Origin: an uncultured Granulosicoccaceae bacterium
Lineage (GTDB): Bacteria; Pseudomonadota; Gammaproteobacteria; Granulosicoccales; Granulosicoccaceae
DNA: 64,000 bases
Assembly: GCA_937922675.1 (NCBI GenBank)
Contig: CALAJN010000008.1
Location: forward strand, 1-64,000
Direction: 5' to 3'
In this document: positions 12,411 through 37,727 of the stretch, one piece after another
Numbering within the stretch: the stretch's first letter is position 1
Layout: the number at the start of each line of letters is the position of its first letter
The notes under the pieces: model-generated
Database searches by the model: none
Told to the model about the DNA's origin: nothing
The model's input: the letters and a program-made list of their open reading frames with translations, nothing else
Position numbers and translations under genes: made by a program

Positions 12411-13352
12411 CTATATTGAAGTCGAAGATTTGGTCTTATTAATGATTTTTTTTGACGATAGCCACAGAAACGCCATGACAAGGCGCCCATACACAGTTGG
12501 TGCATAGGCCCTGAGTGATCGCCTGAGAAGCAATTTGGCCGACACACCTCCTTTCCTGTAGCCCAGGTAAATATCTTTGAGCACGGTGAATGGTTGTTTT
12601 TTTGCCAGGTATTTTGACAGATAAGTAGCTCTGAATCCGTGATAGCCTTTGTTGGTGAACGATGATCTGTTGTTTTCAATCCATTTATTTAAAATATGCC
12701 CGTGGTCGTACCGAGATAATCTGCCTTCTGATTCAGAATCATCGTAGACAACCAGCACATCAGGAATCATTCGGACTGTGCGCCCACTGCCGGCAAAACG
12801 AATAATAAAATCGAGATCGTCTGCCACTACTAGTGAATCGTCAAAGCGTATTTCGTTAGTGCACGTTTTTTTAATGACAAAGGTTGATGTGGGCACGACC
12901 TGGTAGTGACAGAACATGAATTCCGAAACATCTGAATCGCCTAAATCCAATTCAGGGGTTGTCCACTGTCTGTTGTCGCCCTTGAATATCGATGCCCTGC
13001 TGACATACATGTCAGCCTCGTTAATTCGGATTTCGCGCTCCATGACCTCAAGCTTTGTAGGAAGGAAGTGGTCGTCTGAATCGAGCAGGGCGATATATGA
13101 ACCACGCGCTTTGGAAAAACCATTATTACGAGCGGCGCTTGCACCGCTATTCTCTTGTCTCACATACTTGAAGCGGGGGTCAGACATCCCTGTTACAACA
13201 CTCTCTATATCTTCGGTGGAGCCATCATCAACGACAATAACCTCGAAATTTGTGTAAGTTTGCATCACACAAGACTCTAGAGCCCGGCGCAAGATATTCG
13301 ACCTGTTGAAGCAAGGAATGACTACGGTGAAAAGTACATCGGATTCAGTCAC
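12411..13352 (-). CDS. Glycosyltransferase family 2
   Basis: The 313-residue GT-A protein begins FTVVIPCFNRSNILRRALES, followed by VDDGSTEDIESVV, NSGASAARNNGFSKARG and the metal-binding LLDSDDHF. The C-terminal third contains VADDLDFIIRFAGSG, a usual acceptor-loop acidic motif. It transfers a sugar to the growing lipid-linked oligosaccharide. It lies between the polymerase-like and flippase genes on the same strand. The sequence gives no clue to the donor sugar. Confidence 0.92.
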   Translation of the reverse strand: MTESDVLFTVVIPCFNRSNILRRALESCVMQTYTNFEVIVVDDGSTEDIESVVTGMSDPRFKYVRQENSGASAARNNGFSKARGSYIALLDSDDHFLPTKLEVMEREIRINEADMYVSRASIFKGDNRQWTTPELDLGDSDVSEFMFCHYQVVPTSTFVIKKTCTNEIRFDDSLVVADDLDFIIRFAGSGRTVRMIPDVLVVYDDSESEGRLSRYDHGHILNKWIENNRSSFTNKGYHGFRATYLSKYLAKKQPFTVLKDIYLGYRKGGVSAKLLLRRSLRAYAPTVYGRLVMAFLWLSSKKIINKTKSSTSI

Positions 13353-14931: not shown

Positions 14932-15996
14932 TCATTTTTTTGCCTGACGGGTGTCTCCAACCCATTCTTCAGACGATTCGTATCCCAAGTCCAGAAGAGC
15001 TTTTTGGGCTATTTTTGCAAATCGTTTCTTTTTCCGATGATCCCAGCTTGTCCATTTGCTCGATGTTGAAAAGTCTTTGGGTTTTTGAATCGGGACCCAG
15101 CTTGCACGCCCATCCACTTTTATTGATGACGCCCCCCGAACTGGCAAATCAATAGCAACCTGGACAGCATTGTCATCGATGTCCAGCTCAAGAAAACTAA
15201 ATAGACTTCTGACAGACTCGTGTGGGCGCGAGATATAGTCTTCATATCTAAATACATAGATATTTGGATTGTTCTCAGCTCCGTGCTGCGATAGGCACTC
15301 CTCAATAACTACAGCCGCAGCCGCGTACTCTCTGGCGATAGCTACGTCGTTTCTTAAAAACCGACGTGCCCCCTTCCAGGTATCCGTAGTCGATTGAACA
15401 ATATCTCTTCCGTCTCTGATCACTACAACCAGCTTATCTCGTGGAAACAACGTTGGGAAAAGATCCAGGTGTTGAACACTCGGCATTTTAAGAAGCGCAG
15501 TCCGATCGTTTCCAATTCTTGTCTGCAAGTCACGCATCCAGCCAGAAACCAGGAAGCTCATCATCTCGATACCTGTGACGTTGTCAGCGACTTCACGATG
15601 ACGAGCTACAATAGAAGCAAAAAACGCATCCATAGACCGGGAATTACACAGCAATGGAAACTCACTCAGGCCTATTGACCGGCCGACAACATCAGGATGA
15701 GTTTCGATAATGTCGTGAACAATATTTGAGCCGCACCTGGGCAGAATGCCATGAACGCAAATAGCCGGGGTATAGTTATCGCCCCGTATGTTCGACGCAA
15801 CTTCCTTCGCGCGAGGAATGCTCTCATGCCATAAGTCTGGGGTCTTGTAGTAGCTATCTACTACGTGATTAGCACCGAATATGCGACGGGTGATCCAGGA
15901 TAATTCTTCAACCCTGGCTCGAGCTAAGCGCCACATCCAGTATTCGTTCCCCGATAAGGGCGGCTTGCTTGCCTCCGGGACGTTACTGTATCTCAT
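14932..15996 (-). CDS. Sulfotransferase family protein
   Basis: The 354-residue protein shows the two PAPS-binding signatures of carbohydrate sulfotransferases: a 5'-phosphosulfate loop in ICVHGILPRCGSNIVHDII, and the 3'-phosphate motif VVVIRDGRDIVQSTTDTW followed by a Ser/Asn-rich helix. Its C-terminal part (VRSLFSFLELDIDD) fits the usual FLGL segment. No signal peptide is present, so it would act in the cytoplasm on a lipid-linked sugar or nucleotide sugar, making the polymer sulfated. The loop reads PRCGSN where GTxRSGST is more common, so the substitution at the Lys/Arg-Ser position deserves attention. It is preceded by a small P-loop protein on the same strand. Confidence 0.8.
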   Translation of the reverse strand: MRYSNVPEASKPPLSGNEYWMWRLARARVEELSWITRRIFGANHVVDSYYKTPDLWHESIPRAKEVASNIRGDNYTPAICVHGILPRCGSNIVHDIIETHPDVVGRSIGLSEFPLLCNSRSMDAFFASIVARHREVADNVTGIEMMSFLVSGWMRDLQTRIGNDRTALLKMPSVQHLDLFPTLFPRDKLVVVIRDGRDIVQSTTDTWKGARRFLRNDVAIAREYAAAAVVIEECLSQHGAENNPNIYVFRYEDYISRPHESVRSLFSFLELDIDDNAVQVAIDLPVRGASSIKVDGRASWVPIQKPKDFSTSSKWTSWDHRKKKRFAKIAQKALLDLGYESSEEWVGDTRQAKK

Positions 15997-16875: not shown

Positions 16876-17631
16876 CTAGCCGTGTTCAATTCTGCTCTTG
16901 ATCGCCGCATCTTGTGCCGCCTCCAGGCTGGCCACGTCGTTCAGGTTAATATAGTCACCGGTCATATCAAACGCGCCAATGGTGTGGCCTGACCGGATCA
17001 GGTCATCCACGAAGGTCACAAAATCCAGACTAGTACGGCCGCTATCGAATGCAGCCTCCAGCTCGGTCATGACATCAGCTCTGACAAGAAAGCTAGCCAT
17101 GCCTAGTAGGTCGTTGGGAAGAGATACAGGGTTTTCGACAAGCCGAACAACGCGTGTGCCATTTCGTTCAACAGAGAAATTCTTTTTGATGAGTGTTGGA
17201 TCGTCGACTGATTTGACGGGAAACACTGCACTGTATTTTTCAAGATCAAACGCGCTGAAATCACCCATGTTGGTGTTGAGGTAGAACTCGTCGGCAAGCA
17301 TGATGCAGGCATTGCGCCCTGCCAAAAACGGCTTTGCGAGTAGTACTGACCAGGCCCAGCCCTTGTCCAGGTGCTGATTCTCTACATAGTTGATACGTAC
17401 GCCATGTTTGGCTCCGTCCTCAAAGAAAGACTGGATGGTGTCACCCATGTAGCCAAGTATGATTACGATTTCGTCTATGCCCATCTCATCGCGCATCAAG
17501 TCCAGGTGGCGCTGGATATTGGGTTTACCGTCGATGAGAAACATGCCCTTGTGCAGCTCGTAGGTGTACGGGCGTGCACGAATGCCGCTACCTGCTGCAG
17601 GGATGACGCCAACCAGTGGTGAGGACACCAT
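16876..17631 (-). CDS. Sugar-phosphate nucleotidyltransferase (LicC/RmlA-like)
   Basis: The 251-residue protein starts GVIPAAGSGIRARPYTYELHK, the nucleotide-binding loop of NTP_transferase enzymes with its Lys. LADEFY supplies the first metal-binding Asp, and GDYINLNDVASL matches the terminal GDW.DVNTPED motif. There is no C-terminal hexapeptide domain, as in LicC and the shorter thymidylyltransferases. It would activate a sugar-1-phosphate (or phosphocholine-like alcohol phosphate) to an NDP form. The start at 17631 is preceded by AGGAG, and the gene follows the MtnK-like gene with a 5-bp gap, so the two are cotranslated. Together with that kinase and the IMPase-like phosphatase it forms a three-gene cassette. 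Confidence 0.85.
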   Translation of the reverse strand: MVSSPLVGVIPAAGSGIRARPYTYELHKGMFLIDGKPNIQRHLDLMRDEMGIDEIVIILGYMGDTIQSFFEDGAKHGVRINYVENQHLDKGWAWSVLLAKPFLAGRNACIMLADEFYLNTNMGDFSAFDLEKYSAVFPVKSVDDPTLIKKNFSVERNGTRVVRLVENPVSLPNDLLGMASFLVRADVMTELEAAFDSGRTSLDFVTFVDDLIRSGHTIGAFDMTGDYINLNDVASLEAAQDAAIKSRIEHG

Positions 17632-17636
17632 ATCTC

Positions 17637-18905
17637 CTAGAGAATGGGGGATGAGTAGAAGTTTTTGATCAGCGCAAGTAGGTCGTCAATTGAATTGAGT
17701 GACTTGCGTCCAGTCATCAAGCGTTTGCTCAACTTGAGATTGGCGATCTCAAGCTTTGAGCGAATATCTGCGTCTTCTATGTCACGGATATCTGCAACAC
17801 CAGCGATGCCGAGCGTTCTGCGTGTCATCGAGCATGCGGCAAAGCCGACAGCATCCTGAAGTAAGGTATGCATGTAGGTCTGACGGTACTGCGCCTGCTC
17901 GTCGTTACTGAGAAATCCGTTGGTGAGTAAGGTGGATTCACCGGCCTGTGTCCAACGTTCAACAAAATGACTGCCAAAAGTATTCCAGATGACTTCGATT
18001 TGTTGTAGTAACCACTGCCGGTACTCAGTACCTCCTGAGCGATAGTAGTGGGACGTGCAACACAGCAAGAAATTACCGATTATTTTTCCTACATCGAAGG
18101 CAATCGGCCCAAAGAACGCAAACTCCATATCGATGACATAGCTATCTGCCTGATTCACCATCATGGAGCCGCTGTGAAGATCGCCATGTAGCAACGCTTC
18201 GGTCTTGGATACAAACAGGTTTTTGAACGCCAGCACATCCAGCTTGTATTGAGAATCGGTGTGGATATTCTCTCTTGCCCAAACATCTGTTGCTGGATTT
18301 GAGTAGTTTGACCCGTGCTCCATGTAAGGGAATGTAAAGATGAAATCTTCGCTGAGTTTGCAGAGCTCAGCGTTCATCGTGAACTGTTCCATCAGTTGAC
18401 GTCGCTCAGTGCTTCCCATGGACCAGGCACTGGTTGCAAACAGGGTCTCTGCCATGAAGTAACCGATGTGCTCGGCTACTTTTGGATATTGGATGCCATC
18501 GATCATGCCGAGGCGCAGAATGATGTGGTCACCCAAGTACTCCATAATGAGCGTGCTCATCTGTTCGTCAGTATGGTAGGCCTTGGGTACCAGGCCCGGT
18601 ACCAGTTGGTTGTACAAGGACAAGGCTCGGATTTCATAGGTCATCCGATCTCGGCCAAGTGGCCAATCCTCTCCCGCCAAACGAAGATAGGGCACGGCTT
18701 GCTTGACGATGACAGCCTTGCTTGCATCGGCTGCATTGCTGACGTGGAATACAAAATTCAGATTGCCATCACCAATTTCCCGGACATTCAGGTCGGCACC
18801 GGGGCCGAGTACCTCTACTACTGCAGGGATGCCTGCCAGGTATTCGGGCAAAGAATCTCTATCAAGTATTCGGTAGTCTGCGGTGGTGTTGTTGGCACCG
18901 CTCAC
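17637..18905 (-). CDS. mtnK: Methylthioribose kinase (MtnK) family protein
   Basis: The 422-residue protein matches MtnK along its length: IGDGNLNFVFHVS, VIVKQAVPYLRLAGEDWPL, MSTLIMEYLGDHIILR, ALLHGDLHSGSMMV with the catalytic Asp, and VIDMEFAFFGPIAFDVGK with the metal-binding residues. MtnK (EC 2.7.1.100) phosphorylates the anomeric hydroxyl of 5-methylthioribose in methionine salvage. No mtnA, mtnB or other salvage gene is present here. Instead the gene overlaps the IMPase gene by 4 bp (GTGA, with a GTG start) and is followed 5 bp later by a nucleotidyltransferase. This suggests the enzyme, or a paralogue with changed specificity, makes a furanose-1-phosphate for nucleotide activation. Alternatively it is ordinary salvage placed here by chance. 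Confidence 0.85.
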   Translation of the reverse strand: MSGANNTTADYRILDRDSLPEYLAGIPAVVEVLGPGADLNVREIGDGNLNFVFHVSNAADASKAVIVKQAVPYLRLAGEDWPLGRDRMTYEIRALSLYNQLVPGLVPKAYHTDEQMSTLIMEYLGDHIILRLGMIDGIQYPKVAEHIGYFMAETLFATSAWSMGSTERRQLMEQFTMNAELCKLSEDFIFTFPYMEHGSNYSNPATDVWARENIHTDSQYKLDVLAFKNLFVSKTEALLHGDLHSGSMMVNQADSYVIDMEFAFFGPIAFDVGKIIGNFLLCCTSHYYRSGGTEYRQWLLQQIEVIWNTFGSHFVERWTQAGESTLLTNGFLSNDEQAQYRQTYMHTLLQDAVGFAACSMTRRTLGIAGVADIRDIEDADIRSKLEIANLKLSKRLMTGRKSLNSIDDLLALIKNFYSSPIL

Positions 18906-19759
18906 CCCGCAAGTTCCTCAACCTGAGCGCTTGTTCGCTTGACGACACCTGCCTTGTCTAGCTCACGCAATATGTCGTCGTGAATTAGCCCGTTGGAGAC
19001 GAGCAGATCTGTCTTGTCGAGACGCCACGGGCGACCGTTGAAGTCAGTGACTTTGCCGCCGGCTTCTTGCGCAGCTAATACGCCTGCTGCAACATCCCAC
19101 GAGTCGATATTCAGGGTAGTGAAACCATCGACACGGCCAGCTGCAACCATGTAGCACTCGACTGCTGCCGATCCAATTTTGCGAAAGTCTTTGATCTGCT
19201 GGTGCAGTGCGTACTCCATCTCGGCAAATCGTACGTTGTTTTTCTCTCCTCCCGGGCAACCGACTACGTAGGTGCGGGAGAGATTTTTTGTAGAAGAAAC
19301 CATAACCGGGCGACCATTTAAAGTGCAACCTTGGCCTTTGCGAGCTACAACCATCTCTTCGATAAAGGGAGATAGGATGACACCTGTTATTGGCTCGTCG
19401 TTGTAGGCCAGGCAGATTGACACCGCAAAGAAGGGGTTATGGTTCAAAAAATTGCTGCTGCCATCCAGTGGGTCGATGATCCAGGTATAAGGGCTGCCAT
19501 TGTCGATCAAGCCCGTCTCTTCGGTGAGCAGGTTGTGCGAAGGGCAATGCTCGCGCAGCAAGTCAATGATGATCTTGTCGGCCTCGTGATCGTTCGACGA
19601 GGTCACTTCTTTTGAAAGGCTGCGATTTCCAACGGATAACACCTCGTTTCCGTAGACAGAAGCGTGGTGCTTGCGAAAATTCCTGACAAGCGCCTGTCCA
19701 GCGAGTGTTGCTGCCTTGACGGCGGTATCAGCGAAATAGTGCACAGGTTCTCCAAACAT
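18902..19759 (-). CDS. Inositol monophosphatase family phosphatase
   Basis: The 285-residue protein (from ATG 19759) carries the IMPase signatures: LTEETG with metal-binding Glu, IIDPLDGSSNFLNHNPFFAVSI with the catalytic Asps, and SWDVAAGVLAAQEAGG. Relatives hydrolyse phosphate from inositol phosphates, 3'-phosphoadenosine 5'-phosphate (CysQ) or sugar phosphates. The frame stays open to a GTG at 19945, but that start would lie inside an inverted repeat, and the family's usual length of 260-290 supports the shorter one. It is the first gene of the minus-strand run and overlaps the MtnK-like gene by 4 bp. It could dephosphorylate the sugar used by that kinase. Alternatively it could remove PAP produced by the sulfotransferase. 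Confidence 0.85.
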   Translation of the reverse strand: MFGEPVHYFADTAVKAATLAGQALVRNFRKHHASVYGNEVLSVGNRSLSKEVTSSNDHEADKIIIDLLREHCPSHNLLTEETGLIDNGSPYTWIIDPLDGSSNFLNHNPFFAVSICLAYNDEPITGVILSPFIEEMVVARKGQGCTLNGRPVMVSSTKNLSRTYVVGCPGGEKNNVRFAEMEYALHQQIKDFRKIGSAAVECYMVAAGRVDGFTTLNIDSWDVAAGVLAAQEAGGKVTDFNGRPWRLDKTDLLVSNGLIHDDILRELDKAGVVKRTSAQVEELAG

Positions 19760-20175: not shown

Positions 20176-21951
20176 ATGAATACACGGAACGGTGTGATTC
20201 CTGTCCTGTTCCTGGCAACGCTCTCGGCGTGCTCCGATGGCGACAGTCCCGTTGACCAGCAATCAGAATCTCGCGAGCCCCTTGCCGCGGTATCAACAAC
20301 TTCGAGCCCCAGCGCGCTTGTCGTTCCTACGTCCAGTGCATCCACAATAGTCGATGCCGAGGGTTCGAGCCCACAACCGGCCAACGGAGCAGCTTTGCCG
20401 CAACCCGGCGACACTACGACTCCTGCCGAACCGGAGCCAGAATCGGCGCCCAAGGCAGCGCCGGAACCTGCACCGGAGCCTGCACCGGAACCTGCACCGG
20501 AGCCTGCACCGGAGCCTGCACCGGAGCCTGCTGCCTCACCAGACAGCAAAAAAATTATGGTCGGCACTGGCCCGGGCGACGCACGGTGCCTGGCTATTCC
20601 AGCAGAGCAGCGCAATTTTGGATCTATCAGCAAGTCCGACTGGTCGCGTTGGGTCGGCGATGTACGCTTTGTCAATGGTCCAGAGTTCCTTGAACTGCCT
20701 GGAGAGACTAACGGGCGCCGTACCCTGCGCCAGAGATTTATACCGGCAAGTAACGGTTCACCTCGGGTGATTACCGGCGCCAACCTGCCAGAAGCGCGGA
20801 CATATCGTCTTGTTCAGTCAGTGCTGTTGGAGGACGGATGGGATTGGGGTGGTACGTACGAAAGTGGAAAACTCGGCTTCGGGCTATCGGGAGGGACGTC
20901 CCCCACCGGTGGTGCTCTTGATACCGCTGGATTTTCTGCAAGGTTCAACTGGCGCGGCAACAACGATGGTACGGGCCGGATCAATATCTACTCCTACGCT
21001 TCTGACCGGCCAGAGAGGTATGGTGAAGAAATTAGTATTGGCAATTTTGTGGCACCGATCGGCCAGTGGTTTGATCTCGCTATGGAAGTTAAGTTGAATT
21101 CTTCTACAAACGCGGCGGATGGTGGCATCCGAGCCTGGGTAAATGGACAGCTTTTGCTTGACCGAGGCGGTATCGCCTGGCAAACCTCTGGAGGTACTCC
21201 CGTCGTAGACAACTTGTATTACTCGACATTTTATGGAGGAGGCTCCTCAGAGTGGTCACCTGACCACACCACGTATTCGCAGTTCAGGGATGTCTGCTGG
21301 GCTGCGGTAGTCGATGGTTATTCCGGCATTGACCCGGACAGTGGTCGTATTACCGCGCCGACTGCTGCTGAGTTGGACAACGTGCTTTTTAATGACGGTG
21401 CTCAGACTACTATTTCCGAGCCCTTCGAAGGTTTTCGGAAGAACATTCGCACAAGACTGGAATCTATCCATTTCGAACTGTCCTCGCTGCTTGACGTCGA
21501 GTTGCCCGTCATTGGCTACTCATTGGCGGTTGCAGAGTCCTACGTGCGTGCGGCAAAAAAGGAGTCTCACTGGATCTCTGACACCGAGATCAATCCTCGT
21601 ACACAGGCTTTGATGCATCTGGACTCCGCTATCCTGGCTTTACTTGACACCACTGACGTGCGTGCCTCGCTTGGGGAGTCCGCTGCGCTTGAGCATGCAC
21701 GCACCGCTGAGCTTCTCGTGTTGATGAACGAAGTCCTGGATAGAGTCATTGCACAGGCAGGCAGGGCAGTCGCTATATCGGCGTGTTCGGTAAACGACAG
21801 TGAAACCTGCAGGGCAGCTGAGCAAGCGCTTGAGGTCGCGTTGGACAGTCGTGAGCAAATGGACGCGTTGAGCGATGACGTTCGGCAGGTTCTGACTGTC
21901 GCAAGGCGCGCCTGGGCAGGCGCTGTTAACGTGCTCAACTCCCTCCGCTAG
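20176..21951 (+). CDS. Lipoprotein with polysaccharide-lyase-14-like domain
   Basis: The 591-residue protein has a lipoprotein signal (VIPVLFLATLSACSDGD) and a Pro/Glu/Ala linker at about residues 75-120. The polysaccharide-lyase-14-like beta-jelly-roll domain (about 125-395) shows GWDWGGTYESGKLGFGLSGG, GFSARFNWRG, IRAWVNGQLLLDRGG and NLYYSTFYGGGSSEW. This matches the alginate/glucuronan lyase fold of that family, in which GG..G.GLSGG and the YYSTF...G strands are typical. A helical C-terminal region (about 400-591) has no recognised family. It is likely anchored to a membrane and cleaves a uronate-containing polymer. The gene downstream is a shorter paralogue. The Glu-Ala-Pro linker is encoded by a 12-bp repeat. 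Confidence 0.7.
   Translation: MNTRNGVIPVLFLATLSACSDGDSPVDQQSESREPLAAVSTTSSPSALVVPTSSASTIVDAEGSSPQPANGAALPQPGDTTTPAEPEPESAPKAAPEPAPEPAPEPAPEPAPEPAPEPAASPDSKKIMVGTGPGDARCLAIPAEQRNFGSISKSDWSRWVGDVRFVNGPEFLELPGETNGRRTLRQRFIPASNGSPRVITGANLPEARTYRLVQSVLLEDGWDWGGTYESGKLGFGLSGGTSPTGGALDTAGFSARFNWRGNNDGTGRINIYSYASDRPERYGEEISIGNFVAPIGQWFDLAMEVKLNSSTNAADGGIRAWVNGQLLLDRGGIAWQTSGGTPVVDNLYYSTFYGGGSSEWSPDHTTYSQFRDVCWAAVVDGYSGIDPDSGRITAPTAAELDNVLFNDGAQTTISEPFEGFRKNIRTRLESIHFELSSLLDVELPVIGYSLAVAESYVRAAKKESHWISDTEINPRTQALMHLDSAILALLDTTDVRASLGESAALEHARTAELLVLMNEVLDRVIAQAGRAVAISACSVNDSETCRAAEQALEVALDSREQMDALSDDVRQVLTVARRAWAGAVNVLNSLR
20461..20532. repeat. 12-bp tandem repeat, 6 units, encoding Pro-Glu-Pro-Ala linker
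   Basis: Six units of ccggaRcctgca (the last ending in t) encode a Pro-Glu-Pro-Ala repeat before the lyase-like domain. As with the Glu-Pro arrays near the left edge, the unit is a multiple of three, so length changes leave the frame intact. Confidence 0.9.
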
Positions 21952-22016
21952 CGGTAGGGCTGGGCGGCACGAATTTCCGAAGCTAGTGCAGGCTTTTGAT
22001 AGAATCCGGGTCAGCA

Positions 22017-23030
22017 ATGCTGCCCGGCGATACAATGAGTCCGCTGTTCTCCTCGAATCTGAGTCTTGAAGACATACGAAGTGCGGCGTCGTCGCTGTTA
22101 GTGGGTTTGGGTCTGAGCGTTTACGGTGAAGTAGACGCTCAATCGCAGGGCGGCAGTGTACGTCCTGACGACATTCTGGATCGATCACGCATCACGGTGG
22201 GCTCCTCCCCGGGCGATGCGCAATGTCTGAAATTGCCCGCGGAAAAGCGTCGCTTCGGTTCAATCACCAAAGCCGATTGGTCCAGCTGGATCGCCGATGT
22301 TCGATTTGCCGACGGTACCAGGCACCTGGAGTTGCCGGGAGAAATTGATGGGCACCGCACCCTGCGACAACAATTCGTGCCCGCAAGTAACGGCACAGAC
22401 AGAGTCATTACAGGTGCTGATATTCCAAAGGCCGTGACGTACCGTATGGTTCAGTCAATCCTGTTCGAGCGAGGTTGGGATTGGGGCGGAAAGCACGAAG
22501 GGGGCAAGATCGGCTTCGGGCTGTCTGGAGGCACCTCCCCCACGGGCAACGTTGTAGACACCGCAGGATTTTCGGCACGTTTGATGTGGCAAGGAAACAA
22601 GGATGGATCCGCTCGCATGGGAATGTACACCTACAATGCAGACCGCCCCAAAGCTCGTGGCGCGTACTTTTTGTTTGAGGATTTCGTGGCCCCCGTTGGG
22701 GGCTGGTTTGAGATTGCTTTTGAAATCCAGTTGAACTCGAGTATTCGCACATCCGATGGCCGAATGCGTGCGTGGGTCGACGGCAAACTTGTGCTTGACC
22801 ACGAAGATATCGGCTGGCAGACCTCAGGCGACATACCCATGGTCGACAATCTCTACTACGCATCATTTTTTGGTGGAGGCACCAATGAATGGTCGCCACA
22901 AAACACAACCTACGCCCAGATTCGAGATGTGTGCTGGGCTGCCGTTGTTGACGGTCACTCCGGTATCGACCCCGACAATGGAAAGCTCCTCGCGCCCGAG
23001 ATTGCAAAGCCAGACAATGCTGGACTCTGA
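22017..23030 (+). CDS. Secreted polysaccharide-lyase-14-like protein
   Basis: The protein has about 337 residues from ATG 22017 (the frame opens at a TTG at 21996; ATG 22035 is also possible). It begins with a hydrophobic stretch (SLLVGLGLSVYGEVDAQ) that may be a signal peptide. The lyase-like domain closely repeats that of the gene upstream: WDWGGKHEGGKIGFGLSGG, GFSARLMWQGNK, MRAWVDGKLVLDHED and NLYYASFFGGGTNEW. It lacks both the Pro-rich linker and the helical C-terminal region, so the pair arose by duplication followed by domain loss or gain. It probably degrades or trims a uronate polymer in the periplasm or outside. Substrate unknown. The polymerase-like gene follows after about 40 bp. 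Confidence 0.7.
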   Translation: MLPGDTMSPLFSSNLSLEDIRSAASSLLVGLGLSVYGEVDAQSQGGSVRPDDILDRSRITVGSSPGDAQCLKLPAEKRRFGSITKADWSSWIADVRFADGTRHLELPGEIDGHRTLRQQFVPASNGTDRVITGADIPKAVTYRMVQSILFERGWDWGGKHEGGKIGFGLSGGTSPTGNVVDTAGFSARLMWQGNKDGSARMGMYTYNADRPKARGAYFLFEDFVAPVGGWFEIAFEIQLNSSIRTSDGRMRAWVDGKLVLDHEDIGWQTSGDIPMVDNLYYASFFGGGTNEWSPQNTTYAQIRDVCWAAVVDGHSGIDPDNGKLLAPEIAKPDNAGL

Positions 23031-23069
23031 TTCAATGCGGTTGCGCACAATGACTTGCATCGGAAGAAC

Positions 23070-24560
23070 ATGACGACACAGGTGGCAGCCCGCAATTCGA
23101 GCAGGCGTCGTGGGCGCAAGAAGCACTGGCGGATTTCGGTGCCGAAAGTTGTGACCATGGCAGGACGCTTGTTGCGTCGCATCAGTTCTTCGCTGTATCT
23201 CAATTGTGCCCCGCTGGTGATAAACCTGTTTGCTGCCTCTCTGTGGTGGACGGGTATCCCTCAGCTTTTTGAAGGCCCGGACCAATTTAGTCTTTACTGG
23301 GCTGAATCTCGTGATTTGAATGTTGAGTTGACGCTGACTTACGAGTTGTACAAGCAGAAGCTGCAATTTTTCGGGTACTTCCTTGTAGTGATGCTCTTGC
23401 TTGGAAGAATGCGTGAATTGCTTGCTTTTGTTCGCTGGGAAAAATCGCTGCCTTTGCTGCTTGTGGTCTTGCTGTTGTCATCGCTGGTAAGCGATTACCC
23501 GGATAGAGTATTCATCGATAGTTTTCATCTGTCGTTTGGTTTTTTGGCGATATGGCTGTTTTGTCGTCACCCAACAGTCAGGCGCTCACCGGCACAGGCG
23601 ACTTTTTACGTGCTTTTGGTACCGATTCTGTTGATCCAGTTTGGAACATTTTTGCTGTGGATGATCAACCCGTTAAGTAGCATCAGCGATCTGCTTGCTG
23701 GTAAGCGTATGGGAGGACTCGGTGGCAATCCTAATACCCTGGGCGCGCTCTGCACAATTGCTGTCTGGGCATTGCTTGGCTTGATGTGCAGGCTGACACC
23801 CAAGGTAGTGGCATGGTGGTTGGCGTTGGTGTCGCTCGGTATCGTCTTGTTCAACTTGTTTGGAACCGGTAGCGCAACCGCACAGGTTATGTCGGCGATA
23901 ATTGGCGTTGCTTACGCTGCGCAAGTCAGCTTTGGATTTCTTGGCACGAGGAGCCGTGCTGTAGTGATTTTTTTGGGCGCAGTAGTCGTGCTGTCTACCG
24001 TGTTCTATTTGCTGGCGCTCCAAGAAGTGTCAAATTTTGCTGCTGCTTCAGTTACCGCGGTTGGCAAGGACCTGACGTTGACTGGTCGTCTGGACATTTG
24101 GGAAGTGGGGGCGGGCGCGTTTCTCGAGAGGCCATTCTTTGGGTGGGGGTACGATGGACATCAAACCGTGTTTGAAGATCCACGTTTTTCTGTTGGGTAT
24201 AACCAGTACCACAGTGGCTTCATTGACACCTTGATCAACGTGGGCCTGACAGGGTTTGTCGCCTATTTGTTTGTTTTAAAAACATTCTTTACCCGGTGTT
24301 TCTCGCTGCTGCGAGGGCGTCGTGACGTGTTTCCAATGCTTGTCTTTGGATTCATTGGAATAGTTCACAATCTCACTGAATATTCGATATTCAGACCGAA
24401 TGTAAGCTTTTGGTTTGCGTGGACCATTGTGTTCATGACTGTTGCGGTAGCGTCAATGCCTGCGTCCTCTGCCAGAAAATCAGGATCCCTGCAGCCTGCC
24501 GGGATTCACCGATCAAACTCTCGTCGGGCTACTCGTGGCAGGACCAGACTCCGGTGGTAG
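23070..24560 (+). CDS. Second Wzy/O-antigen-ligase-like membrane protein
   Basis: The frame has about ten hydrophobic segments. The O-antigen ligase/polymerase signature appears as KRMGGLGGNPNTLGAL (periplasmic loop) and RPFFGWGYDGHQTVF, the P..G.G loop of the Wzy_C family. LTGRLDIWEVG is also typical. ATG 23070 is preceded by GGAAG and is preferred over the TTG at 23055. The basic N-terminus (NSSRRRGRKKH) is cytoplasmic. It is followed by a flippase, so this + strand unit holds its own Wzy-Wzx pair, in addition to the pair at 11033-14804. It could polymerise a second polymer or act as ligase. Confidence 0.85.
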   Translation: MTTQVAARNSSRRRGRKKHWRISVPKVVTMAGRLLRRISSSLYLNCAPLVINLFAASLWWTGIPQLFEGPDQFSLYWAESRDLNVELTLTYELYKQKLQFFGYFLVVMLLLGRMRELLAFVRWEKSLPLLLVVLLLSSLVSDYPDRVFIDSFHLSFGFLAIWLFCRHPTVRRSPAQATFYVLLVPILLIQFGTFLLWMINPLSSISDLLAGKRMGGLGGNPNTLGALCTIAVWALLGLMCRLTPKVVAWWLALVSLGIVLFNLFGTGSATAQVMSAIIGVAYAAQVSFGFLGTRSRAVVIFLGAVVVLSTVFYLLALQEVSNFAAASVTAVGKDLTLTGRLDIWEVGAGAFLERPFFGWGYDGHQTVFEDPRFSVGYNQYHSGFIDTLINVGLTGFVAYLFVLKTFFTRCFSLLRGRRDVFPMLVFGFIGIVHNLTEYSIFRPNVSFWFAWTIVFMTVAVASMPASSARKSGSLQPAGIHRSNSRRATRGRTRLRW

Positions 24561-32713: not shown

Positions 32714-32820
32714 TTGAAAAACCCTTCTTCGGGTGTGGGCTGGAACGCGGCCCGCCGGGCCGCGTCGGGAAGTCTAGCTGTTGCCAAAAAGCAATTGGAG
32801 ATGCTTTCGCGAGCCGCTGG

Positions 32821-32826
32821 TACAAT
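32821..32826 (+). promoter_or_regulatory. Possible -10 element before the beta-barrel gene
   Basis: TACAAT lies 39 bp before the ATG at 32865 and is followed by a purine-rich stretch. A TTGGAG at 32795-32800 could be a -35 but the 20-bp spacing is too long, so only the -10 is offered. This would start the barrel-wza-wzc transcript. Confidence 0.3.
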
Positions 32827-32864
32827 GGGAAATTAGATTAGTGTCACCCGAGACCTCAGCGCCG

Positions 32865-34100
32865 ATGCCCCGATTTCGCAAGTCTACGATGGCCTTTCAA
32901 GCTGTGCTTTGGGCGTTTGGCGTGTTGTCGGTCGCAACGCCTGCTGCAGCACAGGACCTGGACCGCCAGCAAAGCATCCAGGTTGGCCAAGGAGATCTCT
33001 ACCCGGCGGTCAGGGTGGACGTCGAATCCAACAGCAATATCGGATTGCTGCCCGAAAATGAAGTCGACGGGGTATCCACCGTCGTTCGCCCCGAACTGAT
33101 CTATGTGGCTGACCGCAGCGGGCTCGAGTTCAAAGCGGAGTACATCGGAGCTATCAGCATCAGCTCCGAAGATGCGCTCCAATGGACCGATTCTGCACTG
33201 TCCACGAGCCTGGAAGCCGAATTTGATCGCCGCCGTAGAGCCAATGTTTCGGTCGGATTCTCGCGTGAGCATGAAGACCTGGGCCGCAACCTCACGCGTG
33301 GCGCGGGCGATCGGTTTGATGAGCCGGTCGAGTTCAACCGCTTCGATGTGGCCGCGTCAGTTGGTTACGGCGTGACAGACGCGCGCGGCAATGTCCGCGC
33401 CGGGTTCAGTTTCATAACGCGGGACTACACCAACCTGGACTCAGTGACCGACGGACTGGGGTTCACCTCCTTCAGGCCTTTTGGCGAGTTCAGCGTACGT
33501 GCTGGCGGTAGTAGCCGCGCCTTTTTCCAGCTTCGGGGCAATTTCACAAGTTTTGATAACAGCCTCAGAGATCGGGACCAGATCGGCGTGTTTCTGGGAC
33601 TACGCTTCAACGCGACCGGGCGCTTGTCCGGCTCCATCGGCCTGGGTCTGGACAACGTCACTTTCGCCAGTGATGCCCAGGAAGACGACACTCTCTTTGT
33701 CGTCGAGTCCAATCTGCGCTTTCAGCCGACATCCTTTGCCGCGTTTACTCTTGATATCAACCGGGAAATCAACAATCAGGGTTTTGGCTTCGCTGCTGAC
33801 GGTCAAGGGGACTCCATCGAGACGCTGGTGCGCCTGGGCTGGGACCACGAGTGGTCGTCCCGGGTTTCATCCAGGGGCTTTGTTTCAGCGGATATCGATG
33901 ACGAGGTGTGCCCGACCATCGCGGATTCCACCGTGACCGCTGGTTTCGAGCTCAATTTGGCCTTGCGGCGCTGGTTGGAAGTGGGTGCCGCGTATACGGG
34001 CGAGTCTCGCAGTACGTCTTCCTGTGGGCCCGGAGACGGGGCGGGGGCCCTTGAATACGACCGTCAGCTGGTCGGTGTCCATGTTCGAGCCACCTTGTAG
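32865..34100 (+). CDS. Outer-membrane beta-barrel protein of the export locus
   Basis: The 411-residue protein has a clear signal peptide (MAFQAVLWAFGVLSVATPAAAQ) when started at ATG 32865; the open frame extends upstream to 32781 without signal character. After it come alternating amphipathic strands (VRVDVESNSNIGLLPE, LEFKAEYIGAISI, ANVSVGFSREHEDLG, GNVRAGFSFITRDYTN) ending with an aromatic-poor VGVHVRATL. This pattern fits the outer-membrane beta-barrels encoded beside wza/wzc in several exopolysaccharide clusters. It may form the outer channel or a surface adhesin. No enzyme motif is seen. Transcribed with wza and wzc. Confidence 0.8.
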   Translation: MPRFRKSTMAFQAVLWAFGVLSVATPAAAQDLDRQQSIQVGQGDLYPAVRVDVESNSNIGLLPENEVDGVSTVVRPELIYVADRSGLEFKAEYIGAISISSEDALQWTDSALSTSLEAEFDRRRRANVSVGFSREHEDLGRNLTRGAGDRFDEPVEFNRFDVAASVGYGVTDARGNVRAGFSFITRDYTNLDSVTDGLGFTSFRPFGEFSVRAGGSSRAFFQLRGNFTSFDNSLRDRDQIGVFLGLRFNATGRLSGSIGLGLDNVTFASDAQEDDTLFVVESNLRFQPTSFAAFTLDINREINNQGFGFAADGQGDSIETLVRLGWDHEWSSRVSSRGFVSADIDDEVCPTIADSTVTAGFELNLALRRWLEVGAAYTGESRSTSSCGPGDGAGALEYDRQLVGVHVRATL

Positions 34101-34362
34101 GATTCCGTGGGTACCTCAATCGTCACGTAGATTTTGGCGAGGACTGGCTGCACGGCAGCTTTCTTGAGTGTTATTACCTGCATATATCAGTTTGTCGCGA
34201 TACAATTCCCCCGCGCATGGCGGCGTGAATCGGAACAGCCGGCTATTGATATCCAAATGATTGGCCTGTTTCACATGCGATTTGAGACGTCCTTCCATGG
34301 TGCAGGCAATCGCTCAAGTAGGCTATTTGCTTCGAGTTTCACTCAATCAAGGCCCTTAAACC
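34101..34362. other. Intergenic region between barrel and wza-like genes
   Basis: About 260 bp without an identifiable gene. No clear terminator or operator was found. A promoter for wza-wzc may lie here. Confidence 0.4.
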
Positions 34363-34959
34363 ATGAAGCTGATGTTTAGGCGTGCGCTCCAGCCGATCGC
34401 CGCGCTCTCCTGTGTCATATTGCTCGGCGCTTGCGCCACCCCGCCCCAGGCGCCGTCGTCGGACCAAATTGACTCAGGTGGGACTGCTCCGGCAGTAAGT
34501 GCCGACAGTTACCTCCTTGAGCAGGGGGACCAAATCAGTATCCAGGTGTTCGATGAGCCGGATCTGACGATGGATCAACGCGTGGGTGCCAGCGGCACCA
34601 TCAATTACTCCTACCTGGGGGACCTGCGAGTAGCCGGCAAGACGGCTCAGCAACTCGAGCAGGAAATCACCGGAATGTTGCAGAATGGCTTTCTGGTCAA
34701 TCCTGCCGTCAACGTGACGGTGGTTGAATATCGACCGTTCTTCATCAACGGCGAGGTCCGCAACCCCGGCAGCTACCCCTATCAGCCCGGGTTGACTCTG
34801 GACAAGGCCATCGCGCTGGCAGGCGGGCTCACTGACCGCGCCTCCACTCGCAAGATGTTTGTTCAAAAGGCGTCGAATTCAGACGGACAAGCAAGAGCGT
34901 CGTTGTCGACTCCCATTGCGCCCGGCGACATCATTTCTATAAACGAAGGGTTCTTCTGA
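34363..34959 (+). CDS. wza: Wza-like polysaccharide export lipoprotein
   Basis: The 198-residue protein has a lipobox (VILLGACATP), then the Poly_export domain (LLEQGDQISIQVFDEPDLTMDQRVGASGTINYSYLGDLRVAGKTAQQ is its usual pattern) and one SLBB-type domain (FFINGEVRNPGSYPYQPG, TLDKAIALAGG). It is the shorter, GumB-like form without the C-terminal helical barrel of E. coli Wza. It should form the outer-membrane-side export channel with the periplasmic domain of the Wzc-like protein. The stop codon overlaps the next start (TGATG), giving translational coupling. Confidence 0.9.
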   Translation: MKLMFRRALQPIAALSCVILLGACATPPQAPSSDQIDSGGTAPAVSADSYLLEQGDQISIQVFDEPDLTMDQRVGASGTINYSYLGDLRVAGKTAQQLEQEITGMLQNGFLVNPAVNVTVVEYRPFFINGEVRNPGSYPYQPGLTLDKAIALAGGLTDRASTRKMFVQKASNSDGQARASLSTPIAPGDIISINEGFF

Positions 34960-37727
34960 TGAACTATACAAACACCCAGGTCAGGGACGAATACGCTGAC
35001 GAGTACGATTCTGGTGCTGTGGGCGAAGCCTTTGATTTGCAGCACTACCTGCGGATCTTGCGCAAGCACAAGTGGTTGATCGTGCTCTTTTCGTCGGCTG
35101 TTACCGCACTTGCGGCGTACTACGCATTTACGGCAACGCCGATTTACCGCGCCTCTTCCACGCTGCTCATCGAGCAACAAAAGGCCAATATGGTCTCTAT
35201 CGAAGAGCTCTACGGCGTCGATACCGAAAATGCGGATTACTACGAAACGCAGTATCAGTTGCTCCGCTCGCGTGGTCTGGCGCAGCGGATCGTAGAGCGC
35301 CTGAATCTCTGGGAACACCCCGAGTTGTCCAATGGTGCAACAGGTGCAGTTCAGCAACAGGAAATGTCTGGAGACCAGGCACTGGCTGGAGACAGCATGG
35401 AAACCCTTCCGGTGTCCGAGGATTCAGAGTCTTCGGCTCGCACTAGCTCTGGTTTTTCGCAAACCGTCCTTGGATTGCTTGACCAAGTGGGTCTTGGTGG
35501 TGCGGCTGGGTCCCGGAACGACGCTGATGCCAGCGAGGTTACCGAAGGCCTGTCTGCGAATGAGGCGGCCATGAGAGAACTGGCTTTGTCGTCGGATAAC
35601 CTCGCACAATCGTCAATTCCGGGCATCACTGCGTCCGATATTGAAGGCCAGGGACCCGCGCTCACGCCAAAACAGGAACGCACGATTTCCAGGTTCATGA
35701 GTCGTTTGTCAATTTCGCCTGTTCGCAATACCAAGCTTGTCAATATCAGTTTTGACTCTGAGGATCCTGTGTTTGCTGCTCGCGTAGCCAATGTGGTCGG
35801 GGACGAATACATCCAGAGTTTTCTGGATGCCAAGCTTGAATTGACAACCACCGCGTCTACCTGGTTGAACGAGCGCCTGGGCGAACTCAAGGCAGACCTT
35901 GATGCCGCTGAGGATCGTCTGATCTCCTTTCAACAGGCCAACGATCTGGTCGATGTGCAGGGCAGCGTAGGTCGATTGAACGAGCAACAGCTGCTGCTGG
36001 ACACGGCAGAACTGACACAGGCGCGCAGCGAACTTGCCTCTGCCAGAGACGTATACAACGACGTGCGGGCATTGGAAAACAACCCGGAACTTCTGGAGAC
36101 GATTCCAGCCGTACAAGCTGACCCACTGGTGCAACGTACCAAGATCGAGCAGGGCGCGGTTCAGCGCGAGTTGGATGAGCTGCTTAATCGATACGGTGAG
36201 CGTCACCCGCGTGTACTTGATGTGAAGTCGGAGCTGGCCTCCCTGGAGGGAGCGTTGGCCGGTCACATCCGACGGATTTCCGGCACTCTTGCCAAGGACT
36301 TTCAGCTCGCACAGCAGCGTGTGGCGTCCATCAATGCAAAGCTTGCCAGCGGCCGTAGCGAGATTCAGCTGATTGGCAACAAAAAGTTTGAGCTTGACGC
36401 GTTGCAGCGTGAGGTCGAGACCAAGCGTGGAATCTACGACCAGTATTTCAGTCGCATGACCGAGGCCGCTTCGGCCGATGGCCTGGAGACCGCCAATGCG
36501 CGCATCAGTGATTTTGCTCGCGTACCGGTTGAGCCGGTCAAGCCCAAGAAGCAGTTGATCATTGCGCTGGCCGGGCTGGCGTCACTGGTGCTCTCCATGC
36601 TGATGGCCTTCCTGTACGAGACCATGGATGACACGGTCAAGGGCACGCGCGATGTCGAGGTCAAGCTTGGGCAGAAACTGCTGGGGCTCTTGCCTATGGT
36701 GAAGGCGGGCCTGTTCCAGACGGTCAAAACGCTGCCACTGAACCCCGATGACATTCCCGACAAGAACGGCACCTTCTTTGAAGCTGTCAATACGGTCCGT
36801 ACCGCATTGACGCTCGATGATGGCGATAAACCGGCCAAGATCATTTTGGTGACGTCTTCTGTTCCCGGTGAAGGCAAGTCCACAGCGTCCATAAATCTTG
36901 CTTACTCCCTCGGCCAGCTTGAGCGTGTGCTGCTCATAGACTGCGACATGCGCAAGCCCACCGTCGCCAAGGCGGCTGGCCTGGACAAGAATGTTGACGG
37001 TCTGAGCAGCTTGATTGCTCAAACCGCCAGTGCACAAGCGTGTATCCATCGTGGTGCCTTCGGCGGCAAGGTCGACATTCTGCCGTCTGGTCCCATTCCG
37101 CAGCAACCGCTCGAGCTGCTGTCCTCCAAGCGCTTTGAGCGCATCCTCGGTGAGCTCAGTCGGCACTACGATCGTATCGTGATCGACAGCGCACCGACTC
37201 AGGCGGTGTCTGACGCACTGGTGCTTGGCAAGCTGGCCGATGGTGTTGTCTATGTCGTCAAGGCCCATGCAACCTCCATGGACCTTGTCAGTCGTGGTCT
37301 ACAAAGACTGCAGGAAGCCAGGGCCCCGCTGTCTGGCATCCTGGTATCTCAGGTAGATATCGAAAAGATCTCATCCTACGGAGGCGACTATTTCTTCCAG
37401 GGCTATTACGATTACTACGGCTACAGAGACAAGACCGATAGCAAAAGGCGCCAGGGCAAGATCAACCTGACGCAGGAAGAGCTGCTTGCCATCAGAAACG
37501 ATGACAGTGACGTCAGGTTCGATCTGGATACGAACTACAACGGCAATTCCACCGTCGCGTACGAGAATGGATTTGAGCCGGCACCCGATGCTCGCAGGGT
37601 CAATGGCGCAGGCGCTCCTGCTCATTACCGAGACCGGGCAGAGCCGCGCCGGTCGGAGCCGGCTCGCCAGCCGCGTCAAGCGCGGGCCAAACGCCCTCGT
37701 TTTGAAGACGATCTCGACATCATGTAA
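34959..37727 (+). CDS. wzc: Wzc-like polysaccharide co-polymerase and tyrosine autokinase
   Basis: The 922-residue protein has a cytoplasmic start, a first membrane helix (LIVLFSSAVTALAAYYAF), a Wzz-type periplasmic domain with long coiled-coil parts (about 60-520, including a GNVR-like segment), a second helix (LIIALAGLASLVLSMLMAFL) and a BY-kinase domain. Walker A is SSVPGEGKSTASINLAYSLG, Walker A' VLLIDCDMRKP and Walker B YDRIVIDSAP. A Tyr cluster follows (DYFFQGYYDYYGYRD), the usual autophosphorylation region. A further 90-residue basic tail (RRSEPARQPRQARAKRPR) is less typical. Controls chain length and export with the Wza-like protein. A strong terminator follows. Confidence 0.93.
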   Translation: MNYTNTQVRDEYADEYDSGAVGEAFDLQHYLRILRKHKWLIVLFSSAVTALAAYYAFTATPIYRASSTLLIEQQKANMVSIEELYGVDTENADYYETQYQLLRSRGLAQRIVERLNLWEHPELSNGATGAVQQQEMSGDQALAGDSMETLPVSEDSESSARTSSGFSQTVLGLLDQVGLGGAAGSRNDADASEVTEGLSANEAAMRELALSSDNLAQSSIPGITASDIEGQGPALTPKQERTISRFMSRLSISPVRNTKLVNISFDSEDPVFAARVANVVGDEYIQSFLDAKLELTTTASTWLNERLGELKADLDAAEDRLISFQQANDLVDVQGSVGRLNEQQLLLDTAELTQARSELASARDVYNDVRALENNPELLETIPAVQADPLVQRTKIEQGAVQRELDELLNRYGERHPRVLDVKSELASLEGALAGHIRRISGTLAKDFQLAQQRVASINAKLASGRSEIQLIGNKKFELDALQREVETKRGIYDQYFSRMTEAASADGLETANARISDFARVPVEPVKPKKQLIIALAGLASLVLSMLMAFLYETMDDTVKGTRDVEVKLGQKLLGLLPMVKAGLFQTVKTLPLNPDDIPDKNGTFFEAVNTVRTALTLDDGDKPAKIILVTSSVPGEGKSTASINLAYSLGQLERVLLIDCDMRKPTVAKAAGLDKNVDGLSSLIAQTASAQACIHRGAFGGKVDILPSGPIPQQPLELLSSKRFERILGELSRHYDRIVIDSAPTQAVSDALVLGKLADGVVYVVKAHATSMDLVSRGLQRLQEARAPLSGILVSQVDIEKISSYGGDYFFQGYYDYYGYRDKTDSKRRQGKINLTQEELLAIRNDDSDVRFDLDTNYNGNSTVAYENGFEPAPDARRVNGAGAPAHYRDRAEPRRSEPARQPRQARAKRPRFEDDLDIM

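What the first reader, a model, noticed from the sequence alone, without database searches (positions are those of the whole stretch)
16876..19759. IMPase, MtnK-like kinase and nucleotidyltransferase form a coupled cassette: possible pathway to an NDP-activated furanose
Seen: three genes on one strand, joined by a 4-bp GTGA overlap and a 5-bp gap. The kinase is MtnK-like along its length, yet no methionine-salvage genes are nearby. Known: MtnK phosphorylates the anomeric carbon of 5-methylthioribose. Sugar-1-phosphates are the substrates of NTP_transferase enzymes. Methylthio-pentose caps exist on mycobacterial lipoarabinomannan. Inference: the phosphatase frees a pentose, the kinase makes the 1-phosphate and the nucleotidyltransferase activates it, putting a ribofuranose or methylthio-pentose in the polymer.
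Basis: partly seen in the sequence, partly recalled or inferred. Interest (0 to 1): 0.75.

Follow-up and report, generated by a model that had tools for sequence, protein, structure and literature searches.

The report
Sugar-activation gene trio for surface polysaccharide
Three side-by-side genes, kept together in unrelated environmental bacteria, appear to turn a five-membered-ring sugar into an activated building block for a surface polysaccharide, using an enzyme borrowed from methionine recycling; the exact sugar is still unknown.

Summary
On the minus strand an inositol-monophosphatase-family phosphatase, a methylthioribose-kinase (MtnK)-type kinase and an NTP_transferase lie at 19759-16876, joined by a GTGA overlap and a 5-bp gap. 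The same order occurs at 17 distinct loci in Gamma- and Alphaproteobacteria, Acidimicrobiales and Nitrospirales. The kinases fall in one fully supported clade. All 17 carry Ser three residues before the substrate-binding RR motif, where 55 of 57 other MtnK-type kinases have Lys or Glu; the catalytic and ribofuranose-binding residues are kept. Methionine salvage does not explain the kinase: the window's genome (100% complete) has no MtnA and no nucleosidase that frees methylthioribose. Of 17 cassette genomes, 11 lack MtnA, 2 have a second MtnK beside MtnA, and 4 have an MTA-phosphorylase-like gene that can feed MtnA. Polysaccharide or sugar-nucleotide genes were found beside 14 of 17 cassettes. 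Best reading: sugar phosphate -> free furanose -> furanose-1-phosphate -> NDP-furanose, the logic of MupP-AmgK-MurU built from other enzymes. Papers read describe pentofuranose donors as PRPP or polyprenyl-phosphate-linked, so an NDP route would be new if confirmed.

The parts
18902..19759 (-). Inositol-monophosphatase-family phosphatase, 285 aa; proposed to remove phosphate from a sugar phosphate
   Evidence: PF00459 192.8 bits; no NCBIfam equivalog reached its cut-off; 63-89% identical in 16 other cassettes; metal-site motifs EETG, DPLDGSSN, WD invariant; Thr215 in 17/17 at the site where solved IMPases shown have Glu
17637..18905 (-). MtnK-type (APH-fold) kinase, 422 aa; proposed anomeric furanose kinase
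   Evidence: TIGR01767 462.4 bits vs cut-off 275; AF2 model pLDDT 87.2, Z 50.4 (rmsd 1.6, 375 aligned) to MTR kinase 2pun, next family Z 29.4; HGD, DXEF, RR and W-loop Trp invariant, Ser at RR-3 in 17/17 cassettes
16876..17631 (-). NTP_transferase-family nucleotidyltransferase, 251 aa; proposed sugar-1-phosphate nucleotidyltransferase
   Evidence: PF00483 48.8 bits; below every NCBIfam equivalog cut-off (best RmlA-long 93 vs 320); AF2 model pLDDT 85.8, best folds RmlA/GalU, Z 27.1 (rmsd 2.4, 235 aligned) to 3hl3
18902..18905 (-). GTGA overlap of phosphatase stop and kinase start (likely translational coupling)
   Evidence: read from sequence
17632..17636 (-). 5-bp gap between kinase stop and NTase start, within a Shine-Dalgarno-like AGGAG
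   Evidence: read from sequence
12411..13352 (-). GT2 glycosyltransferase, downstream in the same direction (context)
   Evidence: PF00535 119.2 bits
13446..14804 (-). Wzy/O-antigen-ligase-like polymerase (context)
   Evidence: PF04932 35.1 bits
14932..15996 (-). Sulfotransferase (context)
   Evidence: PF13469 53.3 bits

Best explanation
The three genes are a co-inherited, probably horizontally spread module that makes a nucleotide-activated furanose sugar for an extracellular polysaccharide. Proposed steps: (1) the IMPase-family enzyme removes phosphate from a sugar phosphate to give the free sugar (inferred); (2) the MtnK-type kinase phosphorylates the anomeric OH of that sugar in its alpha-furanose form (inferred from the intact MTR-kinase active site); (3) the nucleotidyltransferase joins the sugar-1-phosphate to a nucleotide to give an NDP-furanose (inferred from family, fold and exclusive co-occurrence); (4) neighbouring glycosyltransferases add it to the polymer (inferred from linkage). 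Shown: gene order, co-inheritance, absence of salvage partners, conserved active sites, linkage to polysaccharide genes. Not shown: any activity, the sugar, the base. The kept W-loop and hydrophobic cap favour a ribofuranose with an apolar C5 (5-deoxy or 5-methylthio), then plain ribose with altered selectivity, but only weakly.
For: Same order IMP-MtnK-NTP in 17 distinct loci across Pseudomonadota (two classes), Actinomycetota and Nitrospirota. The three protein trees agree (distance correlations 0.86-0.89). The kinases form one 100/100 branch with one extra member. Ser at RR-3 in 17/17, Lys/Glu in 55/57 others; a 2007 alignment found only Lys/Glu there (PMC2194712). HGD Asp, DXEF, RR and W-loop Trp are invariant; in solved MTR kinases these bind ribofuranose O1, O2, O3 and cap C5. 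Not salvage: no MtnA or any IF-2B protein in the own genome; no MTA nucleosidase over cut-off in any of 17 cassette genomes; 11/17 lack MtnA; G022 and G044 have a second MtnK beside MtnA. Among 29 relatives the NTase was found only in cassette genomes. Glycosyltransferase, Wzx, Wzz, ManC, UDP-sugar dehydrogenase, dehydratase or CDP-glucose synthase genes were found beside 14/17 cassettes.
Against: No biochemical data. The NTase family also includes phosphocholine and phosphonate cytidylyltransferases (1jyk E 9e-9; 6pd2 Z 24.3), so step 3 need not use a sugar. The characterised MtnK-type enzyme DrdK does not accept ribose (PMC6079011), while free MTR or 5-deoxyribose has no obvious source here without a nucleosidase. 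Phosphatase specificity is unknown. Most cassette genomes are draft MAGs, so absence of a gene and bin labels are weaker evidence there.
Confidence: 0.6

Rival explanations
1. Methylthioribose or 5-deoxyribose capture: the module turns the SAM by-product sugar into an NDP-methylthio(or 5-deoxy)pentose, because these cells make MTR-1-phosphate by phosphorolysis but have no isomerase to recycle it. A special case of the best explanation.
For: Own genome has an MTIP-type phosphorylase (NF006599 318.6 bits vs 223) and no MtnA; 9 of the 11 MtnA-less cassette genomes have an MTAP-like gene. Kinase pocket keeps the methylthio cap: Trp81 plus hydrophobic 188 and 367 (PMC2194712).
Against: MTR-1-P made by phosphorolysis would not need a kinase, and a phosphatase plus a kinase on the same sugar would be futile. 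Four cassette genomes have both MtnA and an MTAP-like gene without a second MtnK, so MTR-1-P there has a normal fate. Ser replaces Lys/Glu next to the substrate site.
Confidence: 0.2
2. A CDP-alcohol or CDP-alditol decoration pathway like LicA/LicC (choline kinase plus phosphocholine cytidylyltransferase): the kinase phosphorylates a small alcohol and the NTase makes its CDP derivative.
For: The NTase is about as similar to phosphocholine cytidylyltransferase (1jyk, E 9e-9) as to sugar enzymes; PntC also matches in fold; choline kinases share the kinase fold at Z about 17-20.
Against: The kinase is an MTR kinase by sequence and fold (Z 50 vs 17-20 for choline kinases) with all ribofuranose-contact residues invariant. 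Best fold matches of the NTase are RmlA and GalU.
Confidence: 0.12
3. The kinase serves ordinary methionine salvage or the 5-deoxyribose/DHAP shunt and merely sits beside two polysaccharide genes.
For: Scores far above the MTRK equivalog cut-off; 6 of 17 cassette genomes do contain MtnA.
Against: Own genome has no MtnA-family protein and no MTA nucleosidase; two genomes keep a separate salvage MtnK beside MtnA; the kinase stays beside the same phosphatase and NTase across phyla; the substrate-site Ser is fixed.
Confidence: 0.05
4. The phosphatase is a housekeeping enzyme (for example PAP or inositol-phosphate phosphatase), not part of the pathway; only kinase and NTase form the activating pair.
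For: IMPase-family enzymes are diverse and a sulfotransferase lies nearby in the window.
Against: The phosphatase is present in all 17 cassettes, evolves with the other two and overlaps the kinase gene here; no sulfotransferase was seen in the other cassette neighbours scanned; the fixed Thr215 departs from IMPases.
Confidence: 0.1

Closest known systems
MupP-AmgK-MurU (Pseudomonas cell-wall recycling to UDP-MurNAc)
   Same: Same logic and enzyme classes: phosphatase frees the sugar, an anomeric kinase makes the alpha-1-phosphate, a nucleotidyltransferase makes the NDP-sugar (PMC5371407); amgK and murU are adjacent.
   Different: Here the phosphatase is IMPase-family rather than HAD, the kinase is MtnK-type, and the linkage is to polysaccharide synthesis. 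The NTase scores only 53.6 bits against MurU (cut-off 250).
MtnK, S-methyl-5-thioribose kinase (TIGR01767), including DrdK
   Same: Whole-length family match (462 bits), fold Z 50, all catalytic and ribofuranose-contact residues kept. DrdK shows that MtnK-type kinases can serve other 5-deoxypentoses (PMC6079011).
   Different: No MtnA partner in this genome, fixed Ser instead of Lys/Glu at RR-3, constant partnership with a phosphatase and an NTase.
PRPP-dependent and undP-dependent ribofuranose addition to bacterial glycans (gPRT-PRP; PPPRS-MATE-GT-C)
   Same: Would deliver a pentofuranose to a polysaccharide; includes a phosphatase step (PMC11127046).
   Different: Those use PRPP or undecaprenyl-P-ribose and remove the 5-phosphate after transfer. 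The cassette would build a soluble NDP-furanose through a sugar-1-phosphate.
Methylthioxylose cap of mycobacterial lipoarabinomannan (MtxS/MtxT)
   Same: A methylthiopentofuranose in a surface polymer.
   Different: MtxS (Rv0539) forms a C50-phosphate-linked donor and MtxT transfers it (PMC8780516). No MtnK/IMPase/NTase trio is described in the text read; the primary paper (PMC5357196) was not held.
RmlA/GalU sugar-1-phosphate nucleotidyltransferases
   Same: Fold and core motifs (Z 24-27). Enzymatic synthesis of furanosyl nucleotides has been reported (Timmons 2008, seen only as a reference title).
   Different: About 17-22% identity, shorter (251 aa), far below all equivalog cut-offs, own conserved signatures such as HKGxFxIDG, LDxGWxWSV and NLNDV.

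Membership tests
MtnK / S-methyl-5-thioribose kinase (TIGR01767) | Whole-length score above the curated equivalog cut-off | tested here: met
   462.4 bits vs 275, residues 11-413
MtnK / S-methyl-5-thioribose kinase (TIGR01767) | HGD catalytic Asp, DXEF, twin-Arg RR, W-loop Trp | tested here: met
   invariant in 17/17 cassette kinases; roles from PMC2194712
MtnK / S-methyl-5-thioribose kinase (TIGR01767) | Lys or Glu three residues before RR (found in every MTR kinase known in 2007) | tested here: not met
   Ser359, 17/17 cassettes; Lys/Glu in 55/57 other kinases
MtnK / S-methyl-5-thioribose kinase (TIGR01767) | Methionine-salvage or DHAP-shunt context (MtnA in the genome) | tested here: not met
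   no TIGR00512 or PF01008 match in the own genome
MtnK / S-methyl-5-thioribose kinase (TIGR01767) | Phosphorylates methylthioribose | not testable with these tools
   needs an enzyme assay
MupP-AmgK-MurU-type pathway | Phosphatase, anomeric kinase and nucleotidyltransferase acting in series | tested here: inconclusive
   genes present and coupled; activities unknown
MupP-AmgK-MurU-type pathway | NTase is a MurU | tested here: not met
   53.6 bits vs cut-off 250
Inositol monophosphatase | IMPase family match and metal-site motifs | tested here: met
   PF00459 192.8 bits; EETG, DPLDGSSN, WD invariant
Inositol monophosphatase | Glu at the inositol-contact position six residues before the WD motif (its role is from memory) | tested here: not met
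   Thr215 in 17/17; Glu in SuhB and 5zhh in the printed alignments
LicC / PntC cytidylyltransferase | Partner kinase of the choline-kinase type | tested here: not met
   partner is MTR-kinase type, Z 50 vs 17-20 for choline kinases
RmlA / GalU | Score above an equivalog cut-off | tested here: not met
   best 93 bits vs 320

The most novel reading that the evidence does not exclude
The module makes a previously unknown NDP-5-deoxy-5-methylthio(or 5-deoxy)-ribofuranose from a SAM by-product, so that a metabolic waste sugar becomes a monomer of a surface polysaccharide.
Probability: 0.2. Interest if true: 0.85.

Novelty: new variant of a known kind. Interest (0 to 1): 0.6.

Why it matters
The papers read describe pentofuranose donors for bacterial glycans as PRPP or polyprenyl-phosphate-linked sugars. 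A kinase-plus-nucleotidyltransferase route to an NDP-furanose would be a new way to supply them, would show a methionine-salvage kinase recruited to polysaccharide synthesis, and would give a three-gene marker for finding unusual furanose-bearing polymers. It would also correct automatic annotation, which calls these kinases methionine-salvage enzymes.

Tried and rejected
Methionine salvage as the role of the kinase: rejected for this genome. Chance adjacency: rejected (17 loci). Naming the NTase from curated families: failed, all far below cut-off. Plasmid records as a source of annotated cassettes: the best-listed MtnK matches were about 40% identical and the NTase matches at most about 33%, and the listed records of the two searches did not overlap. 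Literature for mtnK with nucleotidyltransferase and inositol monophosphatase: no paper; methylthioribose kinase with glycosyltransferase and exopolysaccharide: nothing relevant by title and abstract. Misbinning or recent import as the cause of the wide spread: cassette G+C follows its own flanks within about 6 points at every locus, from 41% to 66%, so the loci look settled in different genomes; bin labels of short contigs (L052) remain unsure. The primary paper on methylthioxylose synthesis was not held. The Fisher value for the RR-3 site ignores relatedness and leaves out the two odd kinases, so it is not used. L065, in the kinase clade but without the two partners nearby, has Phe at the site.
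Full report
OBSERVATION. The window lies in a Granulosicoccaceae-like gammaproteobacterial genome (G000, 3.63 Mb, 20 contigs, completeness 100; same-genus contigs L038 and L040 appear as 'uncultured Granulosicoccaceae'). On the minus strand three ORFs follow each other: phosphatase 19759-18902, kinase 18905-17637, nucleotidyltransferase 17631-16876. The first junction is a GTGA overlap, the second a 5-bp gap within AGGAG. Pfam: Inositol_P, APH, NTP_transferase. NCBIfam: only the kinase passes an equivalog cut-off, S-methyl-5-thioribose kinase, 462 vs 275 bits. Its model superposes on MTR kinases at Z about 50 and on the next family (PsiK) at 29. The NTase model is an RmlA/GalU-type fold.

CONSERVATION. 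A scan of GTDB species genomes with the kinase gave 68 relatives. Adding relatives from the same genus and class, 17 distinct loci, window included, have phosphatase-kinase-NTase in that order and strand, nearly all overlapping or within 30 bp (one 165-bp gap in L062); L053 and L054 duplicate L040 and L038. They come from Granulosicoccaceae, other Gammaproteobacteria, Erythrobacter, Roseovarius, Hyphomonas, Hirschia, Acidimicrobiales and Nitrospirales. Window proteins are up to 89% (phosphatase), 83% (NTase) and 73% (kinase) identical to these relatives; the closest phosphatase and NTase are on a contig binned as Acidimicrobiales (L052), which points to horizontal transfer, with the caution that L052 is a short MAG contig. 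Cassette G+C follows the flanks at each locus, from 41% to 62%. Pairwise tree distances of the three proteins correlate at 0.86-0.89. In a 74-kinase tree all cassette kinases plus one other (L065) form a branch with 100/100 support; its sister group is Campylobacterales kinases. The NTase is rare: one genome in 398 of the phylum besides the window has a match at E below 1e-30, and that one is 35% identical. Among 29 relatives it was found only in genomes that have the cassette.

NOT SALVAGE. The window genome has this one MtnK, no MtnA, no IF-2B-family protein at all and no MTA nucleosidase. It has an MTIP-type phosphorylase, which would make MTR-1-phosphate without a kinase. Across the 17 cassette genomes, 11 have no MtnA. 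G022 and G044 have a second MtnK directly beside MtnA. The other four with MtnA (G032, G041, G046, G047) have an MTAP-like gene that could feed it. In the window's own genus, salvage-type MtnK genes in nine genomes lie within 70 bp of MtnA, a direct contrast. Most of these genomes are drafts; Hirschia maritima is an isolate and also lacks MtnA.

SUBSTRATE SITE. In solved MTR kinases the HGD Asp and the first Arg of RR hold O1, O2 and O3 of alpha-ribofuranose, the Phe after DXE packs on the ring, and the W-loop Trp with two hydrophobic residues caps the 5-methylthio group (PMC2194712). All of these are invariant in the cassette kinases or stay hydrophobic. The residue three before RR was Lys or Glu in every MTR kinase known in 2007; it is Lys or Glu in 55 of 57 non-cassette relatives here and Ser in all 17 cassette kinases. 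These sequences are related, so the count is not a set of independent events. The pattern suggests a furanose kinase with altered selectivity. DrdK, an MtnK-type enzyme, takes 5-deoxyribose and MTR but not ribose (PMC6079011), which weakly favours an apolar C5. The phosphatase keeps the metal-binding motifs but has Thr where the IMPases in the printed alignments have Glu; that this Glu contacts inositol is from memory.

CONTEXT. Glycosyltransferases directly follow or flank the cassette in several lineages (GT61 in L038, L040, L056; GT2 in L055, L056, L058; GT1 in L058, L060, L066), and Wzx, Wzz-kinase, BBP2_2 porin, ManC, UDP-sugar dehydrogenase, GDP-mannose-dehydratase-like and CDP-glucose synthase genes occur beside others: 14 of 17 loci in all (L052 by similarity of its downstream gene, and its epimerase). 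The three exceptions are a 4.6-kb contig (L045), a contig ending just after the cassette with a transposase upstream (L061), and L062, where only one neighbour was scanned. No background rate was computed. The window itself is a polysaccharide locus: GT2, Wzy-like, sulfotransferase, PL14-like lyases, a PF00953 transferase, BBP2_2 porin and Wzz-kinase.

MECHANISM. The best-supported reading is a sugar-activation module: the phosphatase frees a sugar, the MtnK-type kinase phosphorylates its anomeric OH in furanose form, the NTase makes an NDP-furanose, and neighbouring transferases use it. This is the logic of MupP-AmgK-MurU (PMC5371407) with different families. Every catalytic step is inferred. 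The sugar could be ribose, 5-deoxyribose, a methylthiopentose or another furanose; the base is unknown. The need for a phosphatase argues that the precursor is a sugar phosphate other than the 1-phosphate itself.

KNOWN VERSUS NEW. Ribofuranose in bacterial glycans is described as coming from PRPP or undecaprenyl-P-ribose (PMC11127046; PMC12096443), and mycobacterial methylthioxylose from a C50-P donor (PMC8780516). No paper joining mtnK, a nucleotidyltransferase and an inositol monophosphatase was found in the library. I file the module as a new variant of a known kind of pathway.

Noticed in passing
window 20176-23030: Two tandem polysaccharide-lyase-14-like genes, divergent from the cassette, followed by a second Wzy-like gene at 23055-24560.
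   Followed up: no
window 14932-15996: Sulfotransferase in the same run of genes, suggesting a sulfated polymer.
   Followed up: no
L064 3077-9996 (Hirschia maritima) and window 32781-37727: BBP2_2 porin followed by a Wzz/tyrosine-kinase gene lies directly upstream of the cassette in Hirschia and in the same locus in the window.
   Followed up: partly
L130 (G000:C5:134200-135400): MTIP-type phosphorylase in a genome without MtnA: the fate of MTR-1-phosphate is unclear.
   Followed up: partly
L065 8001-9218 (Puniceicoccaceae K14): Kinase of the cassette clade with Phe instead of Ser at RR-3 and no phosphatase or NTase homologue nearby.
   Followed up: partly
L057 9258-9982: NTase gene interrupted by a masked N run in the record.
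   Followed up: no
L038 3923-4786: Gene with a PycTM (Pycsar effector) domain just upstream of the cassette in a Granulosicoccaceae relative.
   Followed up: no
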